A stretch of DNA of 64,000 bases from Curtanaerobium respiraculi (GTDB lineage: Bacteria; Actinomycetota; Coriobacteriia; Coriobacteriales; Eggerthellaceae). How positions within the stretch are numbered: position 1 is the stretch's first letter; each line of letters begins with the position of its first letter. This document shows positions 46,240 through 59,783 of this stretch, piece after piece. The stretch is taken from NCBI RefSeq assembly GCF_024609215.1, contig NZ_JANIPD030000034.1, positions 163,824 to 227,823 on the forward strand, in the 5' to 3' direction. The translations under genes and the position numbers were made by a program. The notes under the pieces were generated by a model that was given only the letters and a program-made list of their open reading frames with translations, was not told the DNA's origin and searched no databases.

Positions 46240-47832
46240 ATGGTCAGCGGATCTGATGCTTCGAGCAAAGTCATCGTGCTTGATTTCGGCGCGCAATACG
46301 GGCAGCTGATCGCCCGCCGCGTACGCGATTTGCACGTGTATTCCGAGATCATGCCCTGCGACGCATCGGCGGATGAGATCGCCGCCGAGCGCCCCGCCGC
46401 CATCATCCTCTCCGGCGGGCCGGCGAGCGTGTACGCGGAGGATGCGCCGAGCGTCGACCCGCGGGTGTTCGATCTAGGCGTGCCGGTGCTGGGCTTCTGC
46501 TACGGGCAGCAGGTCATGGCGACCGCGCTGGGCGGCACGGTCGGCCATACCGAGAAGGGCGAATATGGCGCGGCGAGGCTGCTGCGCACAGGCGATGCGC
46601 AGCTTTTGGAGGGAACCCCCGACGCGCAGACCGTGTGGATGAGCCATCGCGATGCGGTGACCCAGGCACCCGCGGGCTTCACCGTGACGTCGCGCACTGA
46701 GACGTGCCCGGTGGCGTCGATGGAAGACGCCGGACGGCGCCTGTACGCCACGCAGTTCCACCCCGAGGTGCGGCACACCGATTACGGGACGGACATGCTG
46801 AAGAACTTCCTGTTCCAGATATGCCGGCTGGCGCCCACCTGGACGATGGACAACCTGGCAGAGCGCATGGCGGAAGAGATCCGGCAGCAGGTAGGCAGCG
46901 ACCGTGTGATCCTGGCGCTTTCGGGCGGCGTGGATTCCAGCGTGGTGGCGGCGCTGTGCTCGCGGGCGATCGGCAAACAGCTGACCTGCGTGTTCGTGAA
47001 CCATGGTTTGCTGCGCAGGGGCGAACCGGAGCAAGTGGAAGAGGTGTTCACCAAGCAGTTCGACGTGGATTTCGTGCATGTGCATGCGGAGGAGCGGTAT
47101 GCGAAACTGCTGGCGGGCGTGACGGATCCGGAGCGCAAGCGACAGATCATCGGAACGCAGTTTTGGAACGAGTTCTTCGCCGTGGCGCAGAAGCTCGACG
47201 GCGTGAAATGGCTTGCGCAGGGAACGATCTACCCCGACATCATCGAGAGCGGTGCGCGGAAGACCGGCGGCAGGGCGAGCACGATCAAGAGCCATCACAA
47301 TCTGGTCCCATTCCCCGAGGGCGTGAGCTTCGATTTGATCGAGCCGCTGGATCATTTCTTCAAGGACGAGGTGCGGGCATTGGGAACGGCGCTGGGACTG
47401 CCGGATCCGATCGTGTTCCGCCAGCCCTTCCCCGGTCCGGGGCTGGCCATCCGCATCATCGGCGCGGTGGATGCCGAGAAGCTGGAAATCCTTAAGGATG
47501 CCGACGCGATCGTGCGCGAGGAGATCGATTCGTATAACGCGAGGCTGTTCGAGGAGACCGGCGAGCGCAACAGCGAGCACAGCGTGTGGCAGTACTTCGC
47601 GGTGCTTCCCGACGTGAAGAGCGTCGGCGTGATGGGCGACGAGCGCACGTATGCGCGGCCGATCATCCTGCGCGCGGTGGAGAGCAGCGATGCGATGACC
47701 GCGGACTGGGCGAAATTGCCCTACGAACTGCTCGCGCGCGTGAGCGGACGCATCGTGGCGGAGGTACCCGGCGTGAACCGCGTGGCGTACGACATCACGA
47801 GCAAGCCGCCCGCGACGATAGAGTGGGAATAG
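46240..47832 (+). CDS. guaA: GMP synthase (glutamine-hydrolysing)
   Basis: Makes GMP from XMP, glutamine and ATP. The N-terminal class I amidotransferase has VLGFCYGQQVMA with Cys87 and the QFHPEVRH His/Glu pair; the ATP-pyrophosphatase P-loop is ALSGGVDSSVVAAL near residue 230; the C-terminal dimerisation domain ends SKPPATIEWE. The length of 530 residues is normal and the gene is intact. The 3' end of guaA is a known insertion site for genomic islands in many bacteria, and an integrase-bearing element begins within 600 bases of this stop codon. Confidence 0.97.
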   Translation: MVSGSDASSKVIVLDFGAQYGQLIARRVRDLHVYSEIMPCDASADEIAAERPAAIILSGGPASVYAEDAPSVDPRVFDLGVPVLGFCYGQQVMATALGGTVGHTEKGEYGAARLLRTGDAQLLEGTPDAQTVWMSHRDAVTQAPAGFTVTSRTETCPVASMEDAGRRLYATQFHPEVRHTDYGTDMLKNFLFQICRLAPTWTMDNLAERMAEEIRQQVGSDRVILALSGGVDSSVVAALCSRAIGKQLTCVFVNHGLLRRGEPEQVEEVFTKQFDVDFVHVHAEERYAKLLAGVTDPERKRQIIGTQFWNEFFAVAQKLDGVKWLAQGTIYPDIIESGARKTGGRASTIKSHHNLVPFPEGVSFDLIEPLDHFFKDEVRALGTALGLPDPIVFRQPFPGPGLAIRIIGAVDAEKLEILKDADAIVREEIDSYNARLFEETGERNSEHSVWQYFAVLPDVKSVGVMGDERTYARPIILRAVESSDAMTADWAKLPYELLARVSGRIVAEVPGVNRVAYDITSKPPATIEWE

Positions 47833-47945
47833 GGAGATAGCCCATTTCATCTAGTCTCATCCTGCGCGTCTAGTCGTGGTGGCTTGCAACTAGTGCCCTG
47901 TATTGGACAAAGCCACCGGGACTTTCGGGGAGTGACAAACGCGAG

Positions 47946-47982
47946 AAAGCCCCGGAGTCTTCGGATTTCGGGGCTTATTTTA
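47946..47982 (+). terminator. Terminator downstream of guaA
   Basis: AAGCCCCG and CGGGGCTT arms close a 15-base loop and are followed by ATTTTAT. It overlaps the first AGTGACAAA repeat, so it may belong to the element rather than to guaA. Confidence 0.65.
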
Positions 47983-48139
47983 TGGGTGTTAACCTGCGGA
48001 AATACTCTTCGCTCAACCGCGCTGGGGTGACGCGTTGCGACCCGTTGCAAAGAGAAGCGACTAGATGCCAAAACATGCCAAAGCGAGAAGAGTATTTTCA
48101 TCGCGTTTTTTAGCCGCAAGCCTATTTTGACCCGACCCA

Positions 48140-48159
48140 TGTAGTCACTTTGTAGTCAC
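48140..48159. repeat. Paired TGTAGTCAC direct repeats
   Basis: Two TGTAGTCAC copies at 48140-48148 and 48151-48159, spaced 11 bases, about one helical turn. This is a common layout for integrase or excisionase arm sites near element ends. Confidence 0.5.
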
Positions 48160-48237
48160 CCCGCCTTTTCAGCCCTCCGTTTCGCAAAACCGCAGGTAGG
48201 AGTGAAGAGTGACAAATCGAGAAAATCCTCGTTTTCC

Positions 48238-48323
48238 GGCGATTCCGGGCCGTTTTCGGGGTATTCGGAAAGCCGTTTGTCACTCTCAACATCGTGTGCA
48301 ATAGGCGATTTCGGGCCCGTTTT
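48238..48323. repeat. 20-bp imperfect direct repeat near the element end
   Basis: GGCGATTCCGGGC-CGTTTT (48238-48256) and GGCGATTTCGGGCCCGTTTT (48304-48323) differ by one substitution and one insertion. Role unknown. Confidence 0.5.
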
Positions 48324-48418
48324 GGCCCCCGAAAACCGGCAATAGTAATGCGAGAGTGACGATTTGCGGCAAAGAAAAGGGGCGCCGCAGCGTCCCCGTA
48401 AGCGCTCTACGCCCTGCC

Positions 48419-48995: not shown

Positions 48996-50066
48996 ATGTC
49001 AGCGAGGATGGAGCCCAACGGAACGTGGACGGCGCAGGTGTGGTACCGCGACTACAACGGTGACTCGCGGCACAAGACCAAGCGAGGCTTCAAGAGCGAG
49101 GAAGAGGCGTCTGCCTGGGAGGAGGAGTTCTCCTCGAACGCGCAAGGCTCGGTCAGCTCCACCTTCGCCGCTTTCTACGAGGTCTACGAGGCCGACATGC
49201 GCCCGCGCCTGCGCGATCACACCTGGTACACCAAGAGCTACATGATCGAGGGCAAGATACTCCCGTACTTCGGCAACATGCGCGTGGACGAGATTGAGCC
49301 CATCGACGTGGTGCGCTGGCAGAACCGACTCATGGCCCACCGCAACGAGAGGGGCGAGCCCTACGCGCCCACCTACCTGCGCTCGGTGAACAACCAACTC
49401 TCCGCCATCTTCAACCATGCCGTGCGCTACTACGGCCTCAAGGGCAACCCCTGCGCGAAGACCACGCGCATGGGCTCGTCCAAGGGCGGCGAGATGCTCT
49501 TCTGGACGCGCGAGGAGTACCTGCGCTTCGCCGACGCGGTGTCCGACAAGCCGGAGAGCTACTACGCCTTCGAGGTGCTCTACTGGTGCGGCCTGCGCCT
49601 TGGCGAGCTCCTGGCCCTCACGCCGCCAGACTTCGACTTCTCCCGCTCCGAGCTCAAGGTGACGAAGTCCTACCAGCGCCTGCACGGACGCGACGTGGTG
49701 ACGCCGCCCAAGACGCCCAAGTCCGTCCGAACCATCGTGATGCCCAAGTTCCTCACCGACGAGCTCGAACAGTGGGTGGAATCGCTTCCCATCGGGGAGG
49801 ACGAGCGCATCTTCACCTTCACCAAGGCAAAACTCCACCACGAGCTCGACCGCGGCTGCAAGCACTCGCGCGTCAAGCGCATCCGCATCCACGACCTGCG
49901 CCACAGCCACGTCTCGCTGCTCATAGAGATGGGCTTCTCCGCCGTGGCCATAGCCGAGCGCCTGGGCCACGAGAGCTCGGACGTGACCTTCCGCTACGCG
50001 CACCTCTTCCCCGACAAGCAGGGAGAGATGGCGCGCGCCCTCGACGCGACCAGGGCGGGCATCTGA
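48996..50066 (+). CDS. int: Tyrosine-type site-specific integrase
   Basis: Recombinase that integrates and excises the element. The 356 residues show an N-terminal arm-binding fold (GTWTAQVWYRDYNGDSRHKTKRGF), a SAM-like core-binding domain (about 55-160), and the catalytic domain with Arg in YWCGLRLGELLAL, HDLRHSHVSLL (His-x2-Arg), LGHESSDVTFRYAHLF (second His and the nucleophilic Tyr). All catalytic residues are present. It is 30 bases after a cluster of operators and overlaps the next gene by three bases (TGATG), so the two are coupled. The insertion target is inferred to be the guaA end. Confidence 0.95.
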   Translation: MSARMEPNGTWTAQVWYRDYNGDSRHKTKRGFKSEEEASAWEEEFSSNAQGSVSSTFAAFYEVYEADMRPRLRDHTWYTKSYMIEGKILPYFGNMRVDEIEPIDVVRWQNRLMAHRNERGEPYAPTYLRSVNNQLSAIFNHAVRYYGLKGNPCAKTTRMGSSKGGEMLFWTREEYLRFADAVSDKPESYYAFEVLYWCGLRLGELLALTPPDFDFSRSELKVTKSYQRLHGRDVVTPPKTPKSVRTIVMPKFLTDELEQWVESLPIGEDERIFTFTKAKLHHELDRGCKHSRVKRIRIHDLRHSHVSLLIEMGFSAVAIAERLGHESSDVTFRYAHLFPDKQGEMARALDATRAGI

Positions 50067-51195: not shown

Positions 51196-51579
51196 AGCGT
51201 CGGCTTCCCACCAATTTTGTGATCTGCTCTTGCTGATAGATATCAAGCTAGCAATATTGAATCCCTTGCGTGCCTCGCGCTTGAGGTGTCACTGCGAATG
51301 TAGGATCTGTATTAGTGTCACCACATGCCGATTAAGTTGTAGAGGCGAAAATGCACCATGATTTAAAATGTCTTTCAAACTAGAGCGAGGGTAGATATGT
51401 CTACGATGCCGGCGTTTGCTAATAGCGTTTAAACGAATGCCGGGGTAGGAGTAGCAAAGTGGATGAGCAGCTCAGACTAAAAATCTCCCTCAGAGGCATA
51501 TCATTTTCTATAGAGTGAATTCGATGTAAAGAGTGTTGGCCAAAACACCATCAACAATACGACTAAGAATGAGGGTTGA
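51196..51579. other. AT-rich non-coding leader of the defence cargo
   Basis: Base composition drops sharply here and stays low to about 56.2 kb. No gene is supported. A weak inverted repeat with CCGGC / GCCGG arms lies at about 51410-51447. The stretch presumably contains the promoter of the restriction-modification gene. Confidence 0.5.
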
Positions 51580-54500
51580 ATGCCTGTAGATATTGAAACA
51601 GGTAATATTCCAATACCTGATGAACTATTGCCATATGTTGCCAACATACATGAGGCAACTCAGAATGCTGAAAACGAAGAACAACTAAAGTTTGGTCTAG
51701 AGAATATTTTGAGAGAGTTGTGCCATGCCAATAATATTTTCTGGAATCCGTATACATACGAGCACTCATTTAAATCAGGGAAACGCCGACTCGATGCAGT
51801 ACACGGCTCGACAATCATTGAATATGAACCACCTCGATCTTTTAATGGCAGGGTAGGCATTCAGCTTAAACACGCTCGTCAGCAGGCAGAAGAATATTGC
51901 GAGCTGCTGGGAGAAGAAGAAGGCAGAAGAAATGACGCCTACACACTTGTAGCTTGGGATGGCGAGACTATTTCCTTCGGCTTCATTCATCAGGAAGAAG
52001 CCTATTGGGATGACGCTCAACTGTTCGATGCGTCATGCCTATCGAAACTGTTATTGCATATAAAACAAGGCGGAAAGCCACTTGTGAGCCCCATGACGCT
52101 GAAACAGTTTATTGGGCCAGATACCGAAATTGGAAAACAAGTCATACCCGCCCTATACAACGCCATTGTGCAGGCGATACAGAGTCCCGCCACAACGCGA
52201 ACCAAATTGATTTTTACTGAGTGGTCTCGACTATTTAGCCAGGTGGATGGCGTCAGTTCTGAAAGACTTCAGAAGTATCTTGCAAGGGCATCATCGATGC
52301 ACGATACAGACTATCAGTCATATCCTCAGGCTTATGTTTTTGCGCTCAGTACCTATATCGCCATAGTTGCAAAGGTTTGTGCGGCACATGCATTAATGAA
52401 TGGTAATGAGCCTGTTGCCAGTTCAAATTCACCAGTTGAATTTCTCAGAGATGTAGAAAGCGATAGGTACTTTCAGGATAGAGGAATTCAGAACATGCTA
52501 ACAACTGACTTCTTCTCTTGGTATCTTGGCGACGACGTGGCACCGTCGCTTGCGACCAATCTTGAATTGCTGATTACGCATCTTGATGCTCTAGATTTTG
52601 ACGTTACAAGAAAAAGCCCCGAATCCGTCATAGATCTATTCAAGGGGCTCTATATGGAATTTACCCCGGCACCAATGAGGCATGCTTTGGGGGAATATTA
52701 CACTCCCGATTGGCTGGCTTCACATGTTATGAAGGCGGCAGGGTGGTCTACCTATGACTCTTTGCTTGATCCCACATGTGGAAGTGGCACATTTCTTTTA
52801 GAGGCAGTCAAACACCGCCTTGAAGATGCTGCGCCATGCAACACGGCAGGAGATATTCTTGCGGGTCTATATGGCTTTGATTTGAATCCCCTGGCCGTGT
52901 TGACTGCGAGGGCCTCGCTTGTTGTATTTCTCTCGAATTATTTTTCTGCTACTGAGCAAACCATTATTCCTGTGTACCTTGCGGACGCAATTAATACTGC
53001 GGATCCCGTTGACGGAGTTTTTACCCATAGCATTCTTACCGAAAAAGGTAAGAAGACCTTCGCGATACCTTATGAAGTTGCGGTATCTCCTGAGTTCTAT
53101 GACGTAATGAATCATCTGCGCGTATGCATAGACGCAGACATTGAAGCGCCCAAGATAATGCCAGCTCTTGAAAAGGTGTCAGCGACCGTAAGGTATCTAG
53201 AAGCTGATATGAGGGACGCCTTAAAACGGACAATCGAAGATTTAGTTGACCTGCATAAAAGCCACTGGAATGGCATTTGGTGTTTCATTTTGTTCGACAG
53301 GATCAAAGCCGGTTGCGTTAAGGATGTCGACTACGTAATCGGCAATCCACCTTGGGTGAAATGGAGCAACCTTCCTAAACCCTATGCTGAGTTCATTAAA
53401 CCTTTGTGCGAGCGAATGGATATCTTTAGTGAGGATTCTTGGGTAGGCGGAATTCAATCGGACATTTCAACCGTAGTTACATATCACGCCCTTGAGAGAT
53501 TCGTGCGAAAGAATGGCACGCTTGCATTTCTAATAACGGGAACGGTCTTCAAGAACGAGTCGAGCCAAGGGTTTCGTCGCTGGACTCTACACACAGAAGG
53601 CTCAGAAGAGAAGATGTGTGTTGAGCTGGTAGAGGATTATAAAGACTTGAAGCCATTTGATGGCGTAGTTAATTGGCCGACTCTCCTCGTTATACGCCGT
53701 AATGGAAAGCCAACAAAATACCCCATTACCTATCGAGTTTTCAGCAAATCAAGGAAGTTAAAAACGCTGCCGGAGCATCTCTCTAATTCAGTAGAAATGG
53801 AAGCCATCCCTGTTCCGGGCGCAGACGACGGGCCGTGGCTAGTGGGAAATCGCAACCAGTTGGCTATTTGGTCGCATCTCATTGACGCGAGTAGTCCTAG
53901 CCCTTGCTATAGCGCACGAAAGGGAGTCACTACTGATGCCAATGGCATTTATTTCGTTACTGCAAGTCAGTCAAATAGGGCAGGTCAGAATCAATTATCT
54001 ATAACCAATGATCCTGCAAATGGCAGACGCGAACTTCCACAGTTAACTTTGGAAGTAGAGAGCGAGTATATTTTCCCGCTTTTACGGGGACGGGAGATAA
54101 AACGCTTTGGGACTACACGGGCTGAAAACAGCTGCGTTATTGTTCCGCAAACAGGTATGTTTGGTGATGAAAATCTCCCTGCGTCTTCGCCAAATCTTTT
54201 CCAATATCTTGCAAGGTTTAAGGGTGTCCTTGAATCGAGGTCGAGCTATCGACGATTTCAAATGAATAAGCCTTTCTGGTCCGTATGGACTGTAGGCAGC
54301 TATACATTCGCGCCTTTTAAGGTTGTTTGGAAAGAGATGTCTGGGGCAAATTTTGTCGCCTCTTATACTGGTTCAGAGATGCTCCCGAACGGGGAACAGA
54401 AGATTGTTGTTCCCGACCATAAGGTGTATTTCATACCTGTAGAAACAGAAGATGAAGCGGCATACCTTACCGCCTTCCTCAATGCTAGATCTGTATCAGG

Positions 54501-54705
54501 TGCAGTTAGTGCATACTCGTCGGATTTGAGCTTGGGCACTAGTGTGGTTGACTACCTAAAAATCCCAAAATTTAATGGCAAGGATGAATCTATGACGAGG
54601 TTAAGCTCGCTTGGGAAAAAGCTCACCTATAGTGAGTCACCAGTGTCCAATGAAGATGAAGAAGAGCTAGATAAGTTAGTAAAATCTATTGTGACTGAGA
54701 CGTGA
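51580..54705 (+). CDS. Single-chain restriction-modification enzyme (type IIG-like, N6-adenine methylase)
   Basis: A 1041-residue protein that appears to join nuclease, methylase and target recognition. The N-terminal 100 residues hold RRLDAVHGSTIIEYEPP (Asp72, Glu81, Glu83), a PD-(D/E)xK-like strand pair in which the usual Lys is Glu. The methylase region has GEYYTPDWLASHVM (near 370), SAM motif LLDPTCGSGTFLLEA (near 396), GFDLNPLAVLTAR, and catalytic VIGNPPWVKW (near 587). The C-terminal 350 residues resemble a TaqI-like recognition domain (FPLLRGREIKRFG, FKVVWKEMSG, HKVYFIPVETEDEAAYLTAFLNA). Codon use is AT-rich against the GC-rich element, so it was acquired separately. The recognition site is unknown. 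Confidence 0.85.
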   Translation: MPVDIETGNIPIPDELLPYVANIHEATQNAENEEQLKFGLENILRELCHANNIFWNPYTYEHSFKSGKRRLDAVHGSTIIEYEPPRSFNGRVGIQLKHARQQAEEYCELLGEEEGRRNDAYTLVAWDGETISFGFIHQEEAYWDDAQLFDASCLSKLLLHIKQGGKPLVSPMTLKQFIGPDTEIGKQVIPALYNAIVQAIQSPATTRTKLIFTEWSRLFSQVDGVSSERLQKYLARASSMHDTDYQSYPQAYVFALSTYIAIVAKVCAAHALMNGNEPVASSNSPVEFLRDVESDRYFQDRGIQNMLTTDFFSWYLGDDVAPSLATNLELLITHLDALDFDVTRKSPESVIDLFKGLYMEFTPAPMRHALGEYYTPDWLASHVMKAAGWSTYDSLLDPTCGSGTFLLEAVKHRLEDAAPCNTAGDILAGLYGFDLNPLAVLTARASLVVFLSNYFSATEQTIIPVYLADAINTADPVDGVFTHSILTEKGKKTFAIPYEVAVSPEFYDVMNHLRVCIDADIEAPKIMPALEKVSATVRYLEADMRDALKRTIEDLVDLHKSHWNGIWCFILFDRIKAGCVKDVDYVIGNPPWVKWSNLPKPYAEFIKPLCERMDIFSEDSWVGGIQSDISTVVTYHALERFVRKNGTLAFLITGTVFKNESSQGFRRWTLHTEGSEEKMCVELVEDYKDLKPFDGVVNWPTLLVIRRNGKPTKYPITYRVFSKSRKLKTLPEHLSNSVEMEAIPVPGADDGPWLVGNRNQLAIWSHLIDASSPSPCYSARKGVTTDANGIYFVTASQSNRAGQNQLSITNDPANGRRELPQLTLEVESEYIFPLLRGREIKRFGTTRAENSCVIVPQTGMFGDENLPASSPNLFQYLARFKGVLESRSSYRRFQMNKPFWSVWTVGSYTFAPFKVVWKEMSGANFVASYTGSEMLPNGEQKIVVPDHKVYFIPVETEDEAAYLTAFLNARSVSGAVSAYSSDLSLGTSVVDYLKIPKFNGKDESMTRLSSLGKKLTYSESPVSNEDEEELDKLVKSIVTET

Positions 54706-54791
54706 TGCGTGTTGCCTTTAACGAAAACGGACTGCCATGTGCTGCCCAGACGCGCATGGCAGTCCGCGAATTGATAAAATAAGTAGCAGTC

Positions 54792-55778
54792 TTATATGGC
54801 GCCTTTGTTTGCAAGCCGCCTGTAATGTTCCCCCAACAACGTTAGCTTGCAGCCTGTGCTTTCCATGGCGGCGTTCCACATATGATCTGCGTCAACGGGT
54901 ACCAGTAGATTCAGGCGGTTGTACTTTTGCAAGACAGCAAAGATGGCATTATGCCTTGAATCGCTCGTCGGCATATCAGGCGCTCTGCCTTCATCACGAG
55001 GCTCATATGAAGGGTCTAGTCGATATACGTAGCCTTCCGAAGGAAAGAATTCGGAGATGCTCCTGAGCTCTTCGACGGCAATAGGAGGAGTTACCTTGCG
55101 CAGGGAAACGAACCTTTCGGTGTTGGTCTTGAATACAGGCCGTTGTTCCCATGCACCAAGAGACTGGTCAATATGCGCATAAACACTTCCTGGTGTAACG
55201 TCGCCAGTCAGATTGGCGGCTGAACCTTTTAGCGCATCTAGTAGGAGGTTGGTGAAGACACCATGATCTCCGATTTCCGTCGACGGTTCATCATCCCTTG
55301 AGGCGGTGAGAATGGTCACTCCGTCGGCAATAGCAGAGTGATTCTCCCGGTTCGGAATCTGCCCTGCAGCTCCAGAAAAACAGCTGTCCAGGATGATAAT
55401 TTTATTCCTGGCAAGAGATCCATTTGCGATGTCAACCAATGTGCGTAGCGACAGTCCCTCGTCGCCTCGCATACATTCTGACGTGATTATGTATCCACCT
55501 GAAGATTCGACGTATCCGTGACCGGCGAAATAGAAGAGGGCTATTTCGGCATCGGTTTTAAAGAGCTTCTCTACATTATCTTTGAGAGTAGCTCTAGTGA
55601 TGACATTATTACCGTCAGCTACGAGCAGCCTTGTGTCAAAGTTCTTGGAACGTTCGGCATCACCGTTTCGTTCCAACAAGCCATTAACTGCGGTTGCATC
55701 AGAAACACAGCATGAGAGCGGGTTGACGTTCTGGTAGTTATCTATACCTACTACTAAAGCTATCCTACTTTCACTCAT
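54792..55778 (-). CDS. Caspase-like (C14) peptidase, effector of a TIR-linked defence pair
   Basis: A 328-residue protein with an N-terminal caspase fold: RIALVVGIDNYQNVNPL, ALFYFAGHGYV with catalytic His87, and IIILDSCFSGAAG with catalytic Cys133, then TILTASRDDEPSTE and GVFTNLLLDAL. The last 95 residues (SEFFPSEGYVYRLDPSYEP onward) belong to no family I know and could be a ligand sensor or substrate adaptor. It starts eight bases past the TIR gene stop with no separate ribosome site, so it depends on coupled translation. With the TIR gene it resembles caspase-coupled Thoeris defence: a TIR signal activates a protease that kills the infected cell. Confidence 0.88.
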   Translation of the reverse strand: MSESRIALVVGIDNYQNVNPLSCCVSDATAVNGLLERNGDAERSKNFDTRLLVADGNNVITRATLKDNVEKLFKTDAEIALFYFAGHGYVESSGGYIITSECMRGDEGLSLRTLVDIANGSLARNKIIILDSCFSGAAGQIPNRENHSAIADGVTILTASRDDEPSTEIGDHGVFTNLLLDALKGSAANLTGDVTPGSVYAHIDQSLGAWEQRPVFKTNTERFVSLRKVTPPIAVEELRSISEFFPSEGYVYRLDPSYEPRDEGRAPDMPTSDSRHNAIFAVLQKYNRLNLLVPVDADHMWNAAMESTGCKLTLLGEHYRRLANKGAI

Positions 55779-55783
55779 CGCAA

Positions 55784-56152
55784 TCACAGACTGTCAATGA
55801 AGTCTTCGATATGTTCCCAAGTCCAGGAGACAGTTCGCACGCCCTGCAAGTTAGTACGGTCGTTTGAATAAGCCCACACGCCCAGTACCGGCACACCTTC
55901 TTCGTGGGCGCATTGAATTTCCCATTTTTGCCCGCTTGAGCTAAGAGAGTTCTTGCTGACAAGAGCAATGACTCCATCAGAACGCTTGATGCGAGTACGT
56001 ACCTTGTCTTTCCAACCAGTGAGATATGCCTCTTTGACAGACATATCTATGTATTCAAAAGGAGATAGCGTATTGAGGGACTGTCCCTTGAGCAGGTCTC
56101 TCTGATGTTCGTCCTCTATTGCGAATGCAACAAACACCGTTTTGTTTCTCAT
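55784..56152 (-). CDS. TIR-like domain protein (ThsB type), signal-producing partner
   Basis: A 122-residue single-domain protein of the MTH538/ThsB TIR-like family. It opens KTVFVAFAIEDEHQRDLL, has YLTGWKDKVRTRIKRSDGVIALVSKNSLSSSGQKWEIQCA with Glu78 in the WEI segment as the likely NAD-cleaving residue, and ends in GVWAYSNDRTNLQGV. In Thoeris defence ThsB-like TIRs turn NAD+ into a cyclic ADP-ribose-type signal upon phage infection. The ATG at 56152 has GGAAGGA six bases upstream; a perfect TATAAT box lies at 56194-56199. It is the first gene of a two-gene operon with the caspase-like effector. Confidence 0.87.
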   Translation of the reverse strand: MRNKTVFVAFAIEDEHQRDLLKGQSLNTLSPFEYIDMSVKEAYLTGWKDKVRTRIKRSDGVIALVSKNSLSSSGQKWEIQCAHEEGVPVLGVWAYSNDRTNLQGVRTVSWTWEHIEDFIDSL

Positions 56153-56497: not shown

Positions 56498-56905
56498 ATG
56501 AGCGGACGCTGCGAGCGCGTATATGTGAGGCTCACGCCCGGCGAGAAGGACCGGGCGCTCGACTTCGCGTCGCGAAACGGCCTCACCGTCTCGCAGCTCG
56601 TTCGCGTGCTCATCCAGCTGCCCGCCGACTGCACGGTGGAAGGCGCCCGCACCGCCGTGGTGCTCGACCGCGCCTCCGCATGCAGGCTCGAGCGCGAGAT
56701 GCGCCGCTGGGGCAACCACTACAACCAGGCCGTGCACGCGCTCAACCGCATCGCCTACTACGCCGAGCGCGGCAGCCTCAGGACCGACGAGGCGCAGCGG
56801 CTGCTGAGCGTCGCGGCGGGAAAGCTGGAGGATTTGAACGTCGCCGTCGTGCAGCTGCGCGAGGAGACGCATGGCATCTGCAGCCACGCGATCGTGGGCG
56901 TGTAG
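56498..56905 (+). CDS. mobC: MobC-like relaxosome accessory protein
   Basis: A 135-residue DNA-binding protein that helps the relaxase open the transfer origin. The N-terminal half has an RHH-like start (ERVYVRLTPGEKDRALDFASRNGLTVSQLVRVLI). The C-terminal half carries the MobC helix LEREMRRWGNHYNQAVHALNRIAYYAERG followed by LLSVAAGKLEDLNVAVVQLRE. It is transcribed from the operator-controlled promoter and ends two bases before the relaxase start, so expression is coupled. Confidence 0.88.
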   Translation: MSGRCERVYVRLTPGEKDRALDFASRNGLTVSQLVRVLIQLPADCTVEGARTAVVLDRASACRLEREMRRWGNHYNQAVHALNRIAYYAERGSLRTDEAQRLLSVAAGKLEDLNVAVVQLREETHGICSHAIVGV

Positions 56906-56907
56906 CC

Positions 56908-58164
56908 GTGCCCTACGTGAAGTGCATATCCGGCCATACGAGCGCCCGTGCCGTGCAGCGCTACCTCGAGAGGGGCGGACGCGCCCTGGCGACCGACTTC
57001 CTGAACATCGACGCCCCGGTCTCCGGGGTGAGGAATGGCCTCGAGGACCACGGGCGCATCGACTGGTGGCGCGAGATGGACCGCACGCGCGCCGCCTTCG
57101 GAAACGATGCCGCCTGGAACGGACACCGCGCGCGGACGTGGAAGCACTACATACTTTCGCCGAACCCCACAGACGGCATCGAGCTCCCGCGCCTGCGCAG
57201 GCTCGCCACCGCGTGGGCCAAGGAGAACTTCGGCGACTACGAGGTGGCGATCGTCTACCACGACGACAACGAGGGCCGCATCCCACACGCCCACGTCGTC
57301 GTCAACAACACGAATCTCGCGACGGGACGGCGCATCCAGGAGCCCGACCCGAGGGCGGTGAAGCGCTCGGTGCAGAAGCTCGCGCGCGACATGGGGCTCT
57401 CGTGCTTCGAGGACGCGCCCCACCCATCCGCATCTCGGCGGACACGCGCGGCTAGGCCGCGCCAGCGCGTTCACATAGGGCGCGCGGAGCGTGAGCTCGC
57501 CTTCAAGGGAGTGTACTCCTGGGTATCGGACATCCGCTCGCGCGTGGCCATCGCGCGCATGGTGGCGAGGAGCGAGGGCGAGTTCGAGAGCGTGCTCTCC
57601 GCCATGGGCGTCACGGTCTCGGAGAACTCCGCCAAGGCCGCGCATCGCGACTGGGTCTACGCCCTGGCGGATCAGCCCACGAGAAGGGTCGGCGGGGAGC
57701 GCCTCGGCCTGTCGTTCTCCCGCGAGTCGCTGGAGCGGCGCTTCGCGACTGGGGCTGCGGGTCGGCTTGCCGACGCTACGGAGCGCAGGCTCTACGAGTT
57801 TGCCCGCGAGGCATGCGACCTCGGCGACGTGGAGGAGCTGCGCCGCCTCGCAGACGCCGTGTCCGTGTGCGAGGCGGTGGGGGCGAGGAGCATGGACGAC
57901 CTCGCCCATGCGATGGGACGCCTGCCCGAGGGCTTGGATGCCGCAAGGGCTGCGGCGGCCGTGGCCTACGTCTCCGAGAAGGGACTCCTTCCCCGCCACG
58001 GCGCACGTGGAGCTCAGAGGCGCGCCCGCGCGCCAGAAAGGTCCTGGGAGAAGGACCGGCCCGCATGGATGAGGAATAGAGACGGCGACGTGCGGCATCA
58101 GGAGCCGCAGGCGCCACGCAAGCAGAGGGAAAACCGCGACGGAAGGGGCGGAGATGCTCGTTAA
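56908..58164 (+). CDS. mobA: Relaxase, MobA/VirD2 family
   Basis: Nicks DNA at oriT and pilots the strand into the recipient. With the GTG start at 56908 (two bases after mobC) the protein has 418 residues. The His motif is GRIPHAHVVVNNTN, with KHYILSPNPTDGIELPRLRRLATAWAKENF before it; the likely nucleophilic Tyr is in AVQRYLERGGR near residue 19. The C-terminal half (SWVSDIRSRVAIARMVARSEGEFESVLSAMGVTVSENS and onward) is variable and Arg/Ala-rich. It overlaps the following gene by 11 bases. A longer in-frame upstream extension runs through mobC and is not real. Confidence 0.9.
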   Translation: MPYVKCISGHTSARAVQRYLERGGRALATDFLNIDAPVSGVRNGLEDHGRIDWWREMDRTRAAFGNDAAWNGHRARTWKHYILSPNPTDGIELPRLRRLATAWAKENFGDYEVAIVYHDDNEGRIPHAHVVVNNTNLATGRRIQEPDPRAVKRSVQKLARDMGLSCFEDAPHPSASRRTRAARPRQRVHIGRAERELAFKGVYSWVSDIRSRVAIARMVARSEGEFESVLSAMGVTVSENSAKAAHRDWVYALADQPTRRVGGERLGLSFSRESLERRFATGAAGRLADATERRLYEFAREACDLGDVEELRRLADAVSVCEAVGARSMDDLAHAMGRLPEGLDAARAAAAVAYVSEKGLLPRHGARGAQRRARAPERSWEKDRPAWMRNRDGDVRHQEPQAPRKQRENRDGRGGDAR

Positions 58165-58720: not shown

Positions 58721-58802
58721 GTTGTTGTTCAAGGCCGTGTTCAGGTGGATGTGAGATTGGGACATGGGCGGTAGAATGGAACATGCGAAGATGGGAGGGA
58801 AG

Positions 58803-59783
58803 ATGGCGGGAGACATGAGGACGCGAAAGCCGATGCTCACGGCGAAACAGTTGGTCGGGCATCTGAAGTCCAGGGGCGTGGCGTTCGAGCTCTGTCCAGA
58901 GGCAGACGCGGTGGCGTACCTCTCGGACGCGAACAACTACCTCAGGGCGGCGGCCTACAGGAAGCTCTACTTCCGCCAGGTCGACGGCGACAACCCTGGC
59001 GACTACGTGAACCTCGACTTTAAGGACCTGGTGGAGCTCTCCGCGATAGACCGGCGCCTGCGCGAGGCGCTCCTCTCCGCGACCATAGACGTCGAGCACT
59101 TCGCCAAGCTGCGCCTGCTGCGCATGTGCGAGGAGCATAACGAGGACGGCTACGCGATCGTCTCCGACTACCTCGCGTCGATAGGCGAGAAGCAGCGCTC
59201 CCGGATCGAGGGCGCGCTTGCTGCCAGGGGCGGCGAAGGGCGCGCGCACGACGAGTACTCCGGCGACCTCATCGCCCACTATGCCGCCGGGTATCCCATC
59301 TGGGTGTTTCTTGAGGTGACCGAGTTCGGCGTGCTCGTCGACCTCTGGCGCTATTGCGCCGGGAGGTGGAACGAGCAGGAAATGCGAGACGAGCACTACG
59401 TCCTCAAGAGCGTCAAGGCTCTCCGAAACGCTTGCGCGCACAACAGCCTGATCGTGAACGGGTTCTCGAGCAGCGCCAAGAGGGCTGGTTACCAAGCGTC
59501 CAGGGCGGTCACGACTTCGCTTGCAGAACACGGCATGACGAAGACAAAGTCGAGACGCGCCAAGCTCAGGAACCTCAGGGTCGCTCAGATCGCCGCCACG
59601 CTTTACTCGGTGAGGGAATTCTGCACGCGAGAGCCCACGAGGGAAAGGCACGCGGCCCGCCTCGCAGAGGTAAGGCGCTACGCCGAGGGCTGCGGCGTGC
59701 TCTCCCGCGCCAACGACGGGATTGTGTCGTTCTTCGACTTCATCTGGAGGTTGGTTGACATTTGGCTCTCCGACGGCTCATAA
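58803..59783 (+). CDS. Abi-family (Abi_2-like) HEPN protein, putative abortive infection RNase
   Basis: A 326-residue protein of the Abi_2 (AbiD/AbiF) family. The N-terminal part has PMLTAKQLVGHLKSRGVAFE and LSDANNYLRAAAYRKLYF; the middle LVELSAIDRRLREALLSATIDVEHFAKLRLL; and near residue 207 VKALRNACAHNSLI, where Arg-x4-His is the catalytic HEPN RNase motif. Such proteins stop translation when a phage or transfer event is sensed. The ATG at 58803 follows GGGAGGG; ATGs at 58764 and 58776 are alternatives. It stands behind the relaxase operon and may be co-transcribed. Confidence 0.8.
   Translation: MAGDMRTRKPMLTAKQLVGHLKSRGVAFELCPEADAVAYLSDANNYLRAAAYRKLYFRQVDGDNPGDYVNLDFKDLVELSAIDRRLREALLSATIDVEHFAKLRLLRMCEEHNEDGYAIVSDYLASIGEKQRSRIEGALAARGGEGRAHDEYSGDLIAHYAAGYPIWVFLEVTEFGVLVDLWRYCAGRWNEQEMRDEHYVLKSVKALRNACAHNSLIVNGFSSSAKRAGYQASRAVTTSLAEHGMTKTKSRRAKLRNLRVAQIAATLYSVREFCTREPTRERHAARLAEVRRYAEGCGVLSRANDGIVSFFDFIWRLVDIWLSDGS

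What the first reader, a model, noticed from the sequence alone, without database searches (positions are those of the whole stretch)
54792..56152. TIR-caspase two-gene operon resembling caspase-coupled Thoeris
A ThsB-type TIR-like protein (likely catalytic Glu78) and a caspase-like protease (His87, Cys133) are encoded in one operon with coupled translation. Thoeris systems use TIR-made NAD-derived signals to activate an effector; to my knowledge caspase-type effectors have been reported only recently. Here the caspase has an extra 95-residue C-terminal domain that I cannot place and that could bind the signal or pick the substrate. The pair is carried on a conjugative element of a probable gut actinobacterium, so it could spread between hosts.
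Basis: partly seen in the sequence, partly recalled or inferred. Interest (0 to 1): 0.88.

Follow-up and report, generated by a model that had tools for sequence, protein, structure and literature searches.

The report
TIR-caspase antiphage pair on mobile element
Two neighbouring bacterial genes, a TIR signal-making enzyme and a caspase-like protease, are very probably a copy of a recently described antiphage immune system (type IV Thoeris) carried on a mobile element; this is a real but ordinary member of a known system.

Summary
Window 56152-55784 (-) encodes a 122-aa TIR protein (Pfam ThsB_TIR, over cut-off; Glu78 in 116 of 116 TIR ORFs aligned). 55787-54792 (-) encodes a 331-aa caspase-family protease (His90/Cys136, i.e. 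His87/Cys133 from the ATG, in 82 of 82 rows) with a ~96-aa C-terminal domain that no library placed. Stop and start codons overlap. The pairing is not chance: the 80 best of 187 database relatives of the caspase all have a TIR ORF beside it. The TIR goes with the C-terminal domain: 18 of 18 viral-contig caspases with the domain have a TIR in the stretch held, against 0 of 11 without; in a sample of the window's phylum 4 of 5 against 0 of 24. I read that domain as the receptor for the TIR's signal. A TIR that makes N7-cADPR and so activates a caspase-like protease is published as type IV Thoeris (Rousset et al. 2025, seen only through passages of citing papers). No structure could be predicted (tool switched off), and the tested proteins were not at hand to align. 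Verdict: new member of a known kind, in a low-GC stretch beside a type IIG restriction gene on an integrated element in the order of Collinsella; interest 0.3.

The parts
55784..56152 (-). TIR protein, 122 aa, ThsB-type (putative signal synthase); putative catalytic Glu78
   Evidence: PF08937 over cut-off; PADLOC ThsB hits, best E 1.8e-6; profile matches solved TIR/ThsB chains; Glu78 in 116 of 116 TIR ORFs aligned
54792..55787 (-). Caspase-family protease, 331 aa from GTG 55787 (328 aa from ATG 55778); dyad His90/Cys136 (His87/Cys133 from the ATG)
   Evidence: PF00656 over cut-off; profile matches metacaspases and MALT1 in the PDB; dyad in 82 of 82 rows
54795..55082 (-). C-terminal ~96-aa domain of the caspase (residues 236-331), proposed signal-receptor module; fold unplaced
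   Evidence: Conserved in the 42 rows chosen for A1/A2; no Pfam family at E<=10 for this member, no credible PDB match; presence tracks TIR
55784..55787 (-). Overlap of TIR stop (TGA) and caspase GTG start: possible translational coupling
   Evidence: Sequence
54728..54766 (.). Perfect 12-bp inverted repeat (54728-54739 and 54755-54766) between the convergent type IIG and caspase genes; possible terminator for both
   Evidence: Arms checked; the terminator scan did not list it (its loops are at most 8 bases)
51580..54705 (+). Neighbour: type IIG restriction enzyme-methyltransferase, convergent with the pair, same low-GC stretch
   Evidence: PADLOC PDLC03630 E 1.2e-186; GC 0.42-0.48 in the 500-base steps from 51500 to 54999
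48996..50066 (+). Neighbour: tyrosine integrase of the carrying element, downstream of a GMP synthase gene (guaA, 46240-47832)
   Evidence: PF14659, PF00589, PF14657 over cut-off; GMP synthase domains
56498..58164 (+). Neighbour: NikA-like accessory gene (56498-56905, below cut-off) and MobA/VirD2-type relaxase (start uncertain, ends 58164), divergent from the TIR
   Evidence: PF03432 44.1 bits over cut-off 24.6; NikA-like 20.8 under 27

Best explanation
A type IV Thoeris-like abortive immune pair. The TIR protein (ThsB) is triggered by phage infection and converts NAD+ into a cyclic ADP-ribose-type signal, most likely N7-cADPR. The signal binds the C-terminal domain of the caspase-like protease (ThsA role), which switches on the His/Cys protease; it then cleaves cell proteins, probably after basic residues as metacaspases do (recalled; two acidic residues, Asp30 and Asp134, are invariant here), and stops growth before the phage is finished. 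Shown here: the two folds by sequence-profile match, invariant catalytic residues, adjoining genes, constant pairing in the close family, and association of the C-terminal domain with TIR. Inferred: trigger, signal identity, binding site, substrate, antiphage effect.
For: Family matches over cut-off for both proteins. TIR profile to solved TIR/ThsB chains, best 8fz9 E 9.4e-10, ThsB 9uv0 9.1e-5; caspase profile to metacaspase-1 4.3e-9. Catalytic residues invariant: 116 of 116 and 82 of 82. TIR ORF beside the caspase in 80 of 80 kept genome loci plus G017; of these 81, 59 have one just upstream and 28 just downstream on the same strand, some both; 4 were counted as neither, 3 of them with the TIR adjacent on the opposite strand and L075 a counting artefact (its TIR domain starts just past the caspase). 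C-terminal domain against TIR: 18 of 18 v 0 of 11 and 4 of 5 v 0 of 24. Neighbouring restriction gene. Published precedent of the mechanism.
Against: No structure model could be made. The proteins of Rousset et al. were not available, so orthology to the tested system was not measured. The effector matches NCBIfam caspase_w_EACC1 only below cut-off (88.7 v 140), and no NCBIfam model matched the TIR. One relative with the C-terminal domain has no TIR in the 12 kb examined (L141/L183). No phage or metabolite data.
Confidence: 0.85

Rival explanations
1. Same logic, other messenger: this TIR subfamily makes another NAD-derived molecule (another cADPR isomer or an ADPR conjugate), and the C-terminal domain is tuned to it.
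For: One caspase family is paired with divergent TIRs (17-85% identity to the window TIR among the 29 others chosen for A3); 31 of 81 loci carry more than one TIR ORF.
Against: The C-terminal domain stays conserved across those pairings (35-64% identity to the window's, 14 invariant positions in 42 chosen rows), which suggests one shared ligand.
Confidence: 0.2
2. The caspase is a specific initiator-type protease that cuts one partner (as in Canu, where a caspase activates a nuclease), not a general cell-protein degrader; the TIR might itself be the killer by NAD+ depletion.
For: Canu shows a caspase acting on a dedicated partner (PMC12799240 passages).
Against: Clustering of 1587 neighbouring ORFs of at least 120 aa in 81 loci gave no gene shared by most loci. 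Of the 12 largest clusters, 10 hold Pseudomonas loci only (9-11 loci, shared neighbourhoods); the examples of the two mixed ones (19 and 11 loci) run antisense to a caspase gene and partly antisense to a TIR gene. The window's type IIG protein had no relative among these ORFs. Flanks held are at most 6 kb.
Confidence: 0.08
3. Not immunity: a stabilisation or stress-death module of the element.
For: Carried on mobile elements and plasmids.
Against: The published system of the same architecture is antiphage; a restriction gene and an AbiD-like gene lie nearby.
Confidence: 0.05

Closest known systems
Type IV Thoeris (Rousset et al. 2025, Science 387:510, doi 10.1126/science.adu2262; paper not held, seen through passages of PMC12847820 and PMC13373217)
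   Same: TIR gene and caspase-like protease gene in one operon; TIR of ThsB type; complete active sites
   Different: Signal, activation and antiphage effect untested here; no direct sequence comparison with the tested proteins; here in a genome of the order of Collinsella, on an integrated element
Type I Thoeris (ThsB TIR + SIR2 ThsA)
   Same: ThsB-type TIR (PF08937; solved ThsB chains matched)
   Different: Effector is a caspase; no SIR2 domain in it
Canu caspase-nuclease systems (PMC12799240, passages)
   Same: Bacterial caspase-family protease in antiphage defence
   Different: TIR partner instead of a nuclease; no Ig-like domain found by Pfam
Caspase EACC1-associated type (NCBIfam NF047832)
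   Same: Caspase domain match over residues 9-210
   Different: Below the curated cut-off (88.7 v 140); I did not look for EACC1 itself

Membership tests
Type IV Thoeris | TIR gene and caspase-like protease gene in one operon | tested here: met
   paired in 80 of 80 kept relatives. Co-transcription itself untested
Type IV Thoeris | TIR with the catalytic Glu | tested here: met
   Glu78 in 116 of 116 TIR ORFs, aligned with solved TIRs; activity untested
Type IV Thoeris | Caspase His/Cys dyad intact | tested here: met
   82 of 82 rows
Type IV Thoeris | Sequence orthology to the experimentally tested proteins | not tested
   Reference sequences not available; paper not held. Pseudomonas loci with the same pair are among L037 and L068-L083, but none is known to me to be the tested one
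Type IV Thoeris | TIR makes N7-cADPR on infection | not testable with these tools
   Needs biochemistry
Type IV Thoeris | N7-cADPR activates the protease, which degrades cell proteins | not testable with these tools
   Needs biochemistry; the C-terminal domain is only a proposed receptor
Type IV Thoeris | Protects against phage | not testable with these tools
   Needs phage challenge
Caspase EACC1-associated (NF047832) | Score over curated cut-off | tested here: not met
   88.7 v 140 bits
Type I Thoeris | SIR2-type ThsA effector | tested here: not met
   Partner matches only PF00656 in Pfam at E<=1

The most novel reading that the evidence does not exclude
The ~96-residue C-terminal domain is a receptor module that defines TIR-coupled caspases, reads a signal shared by several divergent TIR subfamilies, and can be rewired: in one genome of the window's phylum (L141/L183) no TIR is found in 12 kb and a SLOG-like protein (my label) follows the caspase, which would mean a non-TIR enzyme feeding the same caspase.
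Probability: 0.25. Interest if true: 0.5.

Novelty: new member of a known kind. Interest (0 to 1): 0.3.

Why it matters
It places a TIR-caspase immune pair on a mobile element in the order of Collinsella and shows what looks like recent exchange of the pair between two families of that order. More useful than the single case is the sharp link between the unplaced C-terminal domain and TIR genes: it names a ~96-residue region, with 14 positions invariant in the 42 rows aligned, as the place to look for the signal-binding site.

Tried and rejected

Winged-helix reading of the C-terminal domain: by eye its end (CKLTxLGxHYWRL) looks like the end of a winged helix, and weak Pfam matches to DUF2513, DUF2250 and TrmB appeared (1-2 of 42 members each, best E 0.037). 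I aligned 8 of the 10 DUF2513 loci found and compared profiles: probability 0.3%, E 0.18. Not supported. A crude propensity estimate of secondary structure was not used.

Type IIG enzyme as third component: it is convergent with the pair, and none of the 1587 neighbouring ORFs in 81 loci is its relative (flanks at most 6 kb).

SLOG-like protein as regular third gene: relatives of it lie in 5 distinct loci with the caspase (L095, there about 3.6 kb away, L135, L141, L155, L169) among the loci scanned, and in 11 of 396 phylum genomes, of which 3 have the caspase beside it. So it is an occasional companion; the search found none in the window's genome. 'SLOG-like' is my label by eye: Pfam gave no family for the L155 and L169 proteins and only a sub-cut-off DNA_processg_A match for L141 (13.0 v 29.6 bits).

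Other collections: 2 of 50,697 phage records match the caspase, one a 21.6-kb phage contig from human faeces, the other a 501-kb Salmonella record that is probably a bacterial contig. In E. coli genomes, DNA matches in 7 of 5426, all on plasmids, none covering 80% of the query; the listed matches lie under TIR genes.

Full report
What is there. On the minus strand the window encodes a 122-residue TIR protein (56152-55784) and a 331-residue caspase-family protein (55787-54792 from a GTG; 328 residues from an ATG 9 nt downstream). The TIR stop and the GTG overlap, and the TIR has a GGAAGGA stretch just upstream of its ATG.

Families. The TIR matches Pfam ThsB_TIR (29.3 bits, cut-off 21.2) and the caspase matches Peptidase_C14 (59.9 bits, cut-off 21.4). 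PADLOC gives ThsB and 'caspase'. NCBIfam gives only caspase_w_EACC1, below its cut-off, and nothing for the TIR. Single-sequence searches of the PDB gave nothing useful: best E 0.26 for the caspase and no hit for the TIR. Profiles did better: the TIR profile (30 rows chosen from 116) hits 8fz9 'TIR' at 9.4e-10 and ThsB chains 9uv0 and 9b7d, and 6lhy; the caspase profile (42 rows chosen from 82) hits metacaspases from 4.3e-9 and MALT1. ThsB_TIR matched 29 of 30 rows of the TIR alignment.

Is it more than chance? A scan of GTDB genomes found 187 relatives of the caspase; the best 80 were kept (45-63% identity, all reaching residue 325 or beyond). They include records titled as archaea and as many bacterial phyla. 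With a TIR profile grown from the window's TIR on the ORFs of these loci, all 80, and the G017 locus, hold a TIR ORF beside the caspase. In 59 of 81 it is just upstream and in 28 just downstream on the same strand (some loci have both). My count put 4 of 81 in neither class: in L015, L057 and L058 the nearest TIR is adjacent on the opposite strand, and in L075 the TIR domain in fact starts just past the caspase. 31 of 81 loci have more than one TIR ORF. The 80 are the best-scoring relatives, so this describes the close family, not all caspases. Glu78 is present in 116 of 116 TIR ORFs aligned. His90, Cys136, Asp30 and Asp134 are present in 82 of 82 caspase rows.

The C-terminal domain. Two sets of caspases allow a control. 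In viral contigs (31 loci found with two short peptide patterns), 18 caspases match through the C-terminal domain and all 18 have a TIR in the stretch held (in L094 about 1 kb away on the other strand; L099 and L100 look near-identical). Two loci cut by contig ends are set aside: L103 (TIR present) and L105 (no TIR). The 11 remaining caspases match only the caspase domain, have no C-terminal-domain match even at E<=10, and 0 of 11 have a TIR. In a sample of 396 genomes of the window's phylum, 51 genomes have a caspase-domain match; 29 loci besides the window's own were fetched (those of the best matches, with about 1.5 kb flanks, a few cut by contig ends). 5 have the C-terminal domain and 4 of these have a TIR; 0 of the other 24 do. 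Fisher tests give 2.9e-8 and 2.1e-4; related loci are not independent, so these are guides. A search with the C-terminal domain alone in 396 phylum genomes found 8 (one is the window's own): 6 of the 8 have a TIR, one is L141's genome, and one (L154) is a short piece on an ORF with no caspase domain. In 16 viral loci found with the domain alone it is always on a caspase (L089, L091 and L097); 15 of these contigs were already in the first viral set. No library places the domain: no Pfam family for this member at E<=10, no credible PDB chain (best E 0.71), and the DUF2513 comparison failed. I infer, without direct test, that it is the receptor for the TIR product.

Third gene? Clustering of 1587 neighbouring ORFs of at least 120 aa in 81 loci showed no gene shared by most loci. 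Of the 12 largest clusters, 10 hold only Pseudomonas loci (9-11 each, shared neighbourhoods). The other two cover 19 and 11 mixed loci; their examples run antisense to a caspase gene and partly antisense to a TIR gene, so they are probably not genes; their other members were not examined. No relative of the window's type IIG protein was among the ORFs.

Setting. The pair lies in a low-GC stretch (0.42-0.52 in the 500-base steps from 51.5 to 56.5 kb, against 0.55-0.72 in the rest of 44-64 kb) together with a convergent type IIG restriction gene (51580-54705). A perfect 12-bp inverted repeat lies between the two convergent genes. Outside are a tyrosine integrase downstream of a GMP synthase gene, a relaxase, and an AbiD-like gene. 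The sequence from the last codons of guaA onward (47815-48364) recurs at 88% identity on contig C23; this fits integration at the guaA 3' end and either the far end of this element or a second one, but neither was shown. The contig ends with the window, so the element's extent is unknown.

Spread. In the window's family the TIR was found in 2 of 138 genomes, its own and G017. By the tool's kinship labels G017 is in the window's family, and G380, whose locus is identical to Collinsella sp. An7 over 3279 bases, is only in its order. G017 and An7 share 1817 bases at 92% identity covering TIR and caspase; of the five other matching stretches, four are 69-77% and one of 46 bases is 96%. The pair thus appears to have moved as a unit. 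An7 also has a stretch matching the window's relaxase region at 68%. Among plasmids, 88 of 72,556 records match the caspase, 43 over at least 80% of it; in the three plasmid regions I opened (two E. coli, one Klebsiella) a TIR-domain gene is annotated next to the caspase gene, which is incomplete in one.

What it works like, and what it is. A TIR that makes N7-cADPR and so activates a caspase-like protease that degrades cell proteins is described as type IV Thoeris by Rousset et al. 2025; I saw this only as reported in PMC12847820 (passages), and as a named system in PMC13373217 (passages). The Science paper is not held. The features of that system that can be read from sequence are met. Signal chemistry, activation and phage protection cannot be tested here, and I could not align to the tested proteins. 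My reading is type IV Thoeris, confidence 0.85. Cleavage after basic residues is inferred from two invariant acidic residues and recalled knowledge of metacaspases.

Verdict. Real, well supported, and a new member of a known kind. The association of the C-terminal domain with TIR genes is the most useful result. I did not see it in the passages read of three papers, but the primary paper was not available, so I do not claim that it is new.

Noticed in passing
L141 / L183 (G480:C143), caspase at L141 1186-2274 minus: Caspase with the C-terminal domain but no TIR in the 12 kb examined; a SLOG-like protein (my label; Pfam only sub-cut-off) follows on the same strand.
   Followed up: partly
L155, L135, L169, L095: SLOG-like genes in 4 further loci with TIR-caspase pairs (in L095 about 3.6 kb away); in L169 also a DUF4231 membrane protein over cut-off, with SLATT_1 just below cut-off.
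   Followed up: partly
L117 5003-5299 and L119 5042-5191: A second, short C-terminal-domain-like piece just downstream of the caspase on E. coli and Klebsiella plasmids.
   Followed up: no
L127 1489-2464: Caspase gene in two overlapping frames in a genome of the same order; possibly broken. TIR downstream.
   Followed up: no
L118 (E. coli plasmid NZ_CP041112.1): TIR gene beside a caspase gene annotated as incomplete, among transposase and drug-resistance genes; described only.
   Followed up: no
window 58764-59783 +: AbiD/Abi_2-like gene close by, past the relaxase.
   Followed up: no
window 47815-48364 and G000:C23:5482-6020: 550-bp near-copy (88%) of the stretch after guaA, with the guaA 3'-terminal codons, on another contig.
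   Followed up: partly
L154 (G274:C93) 1495-2031 minus: C-terminal-domain piece on an ORF with no caspase-domain match; probably a remnant.
   Followed up: no
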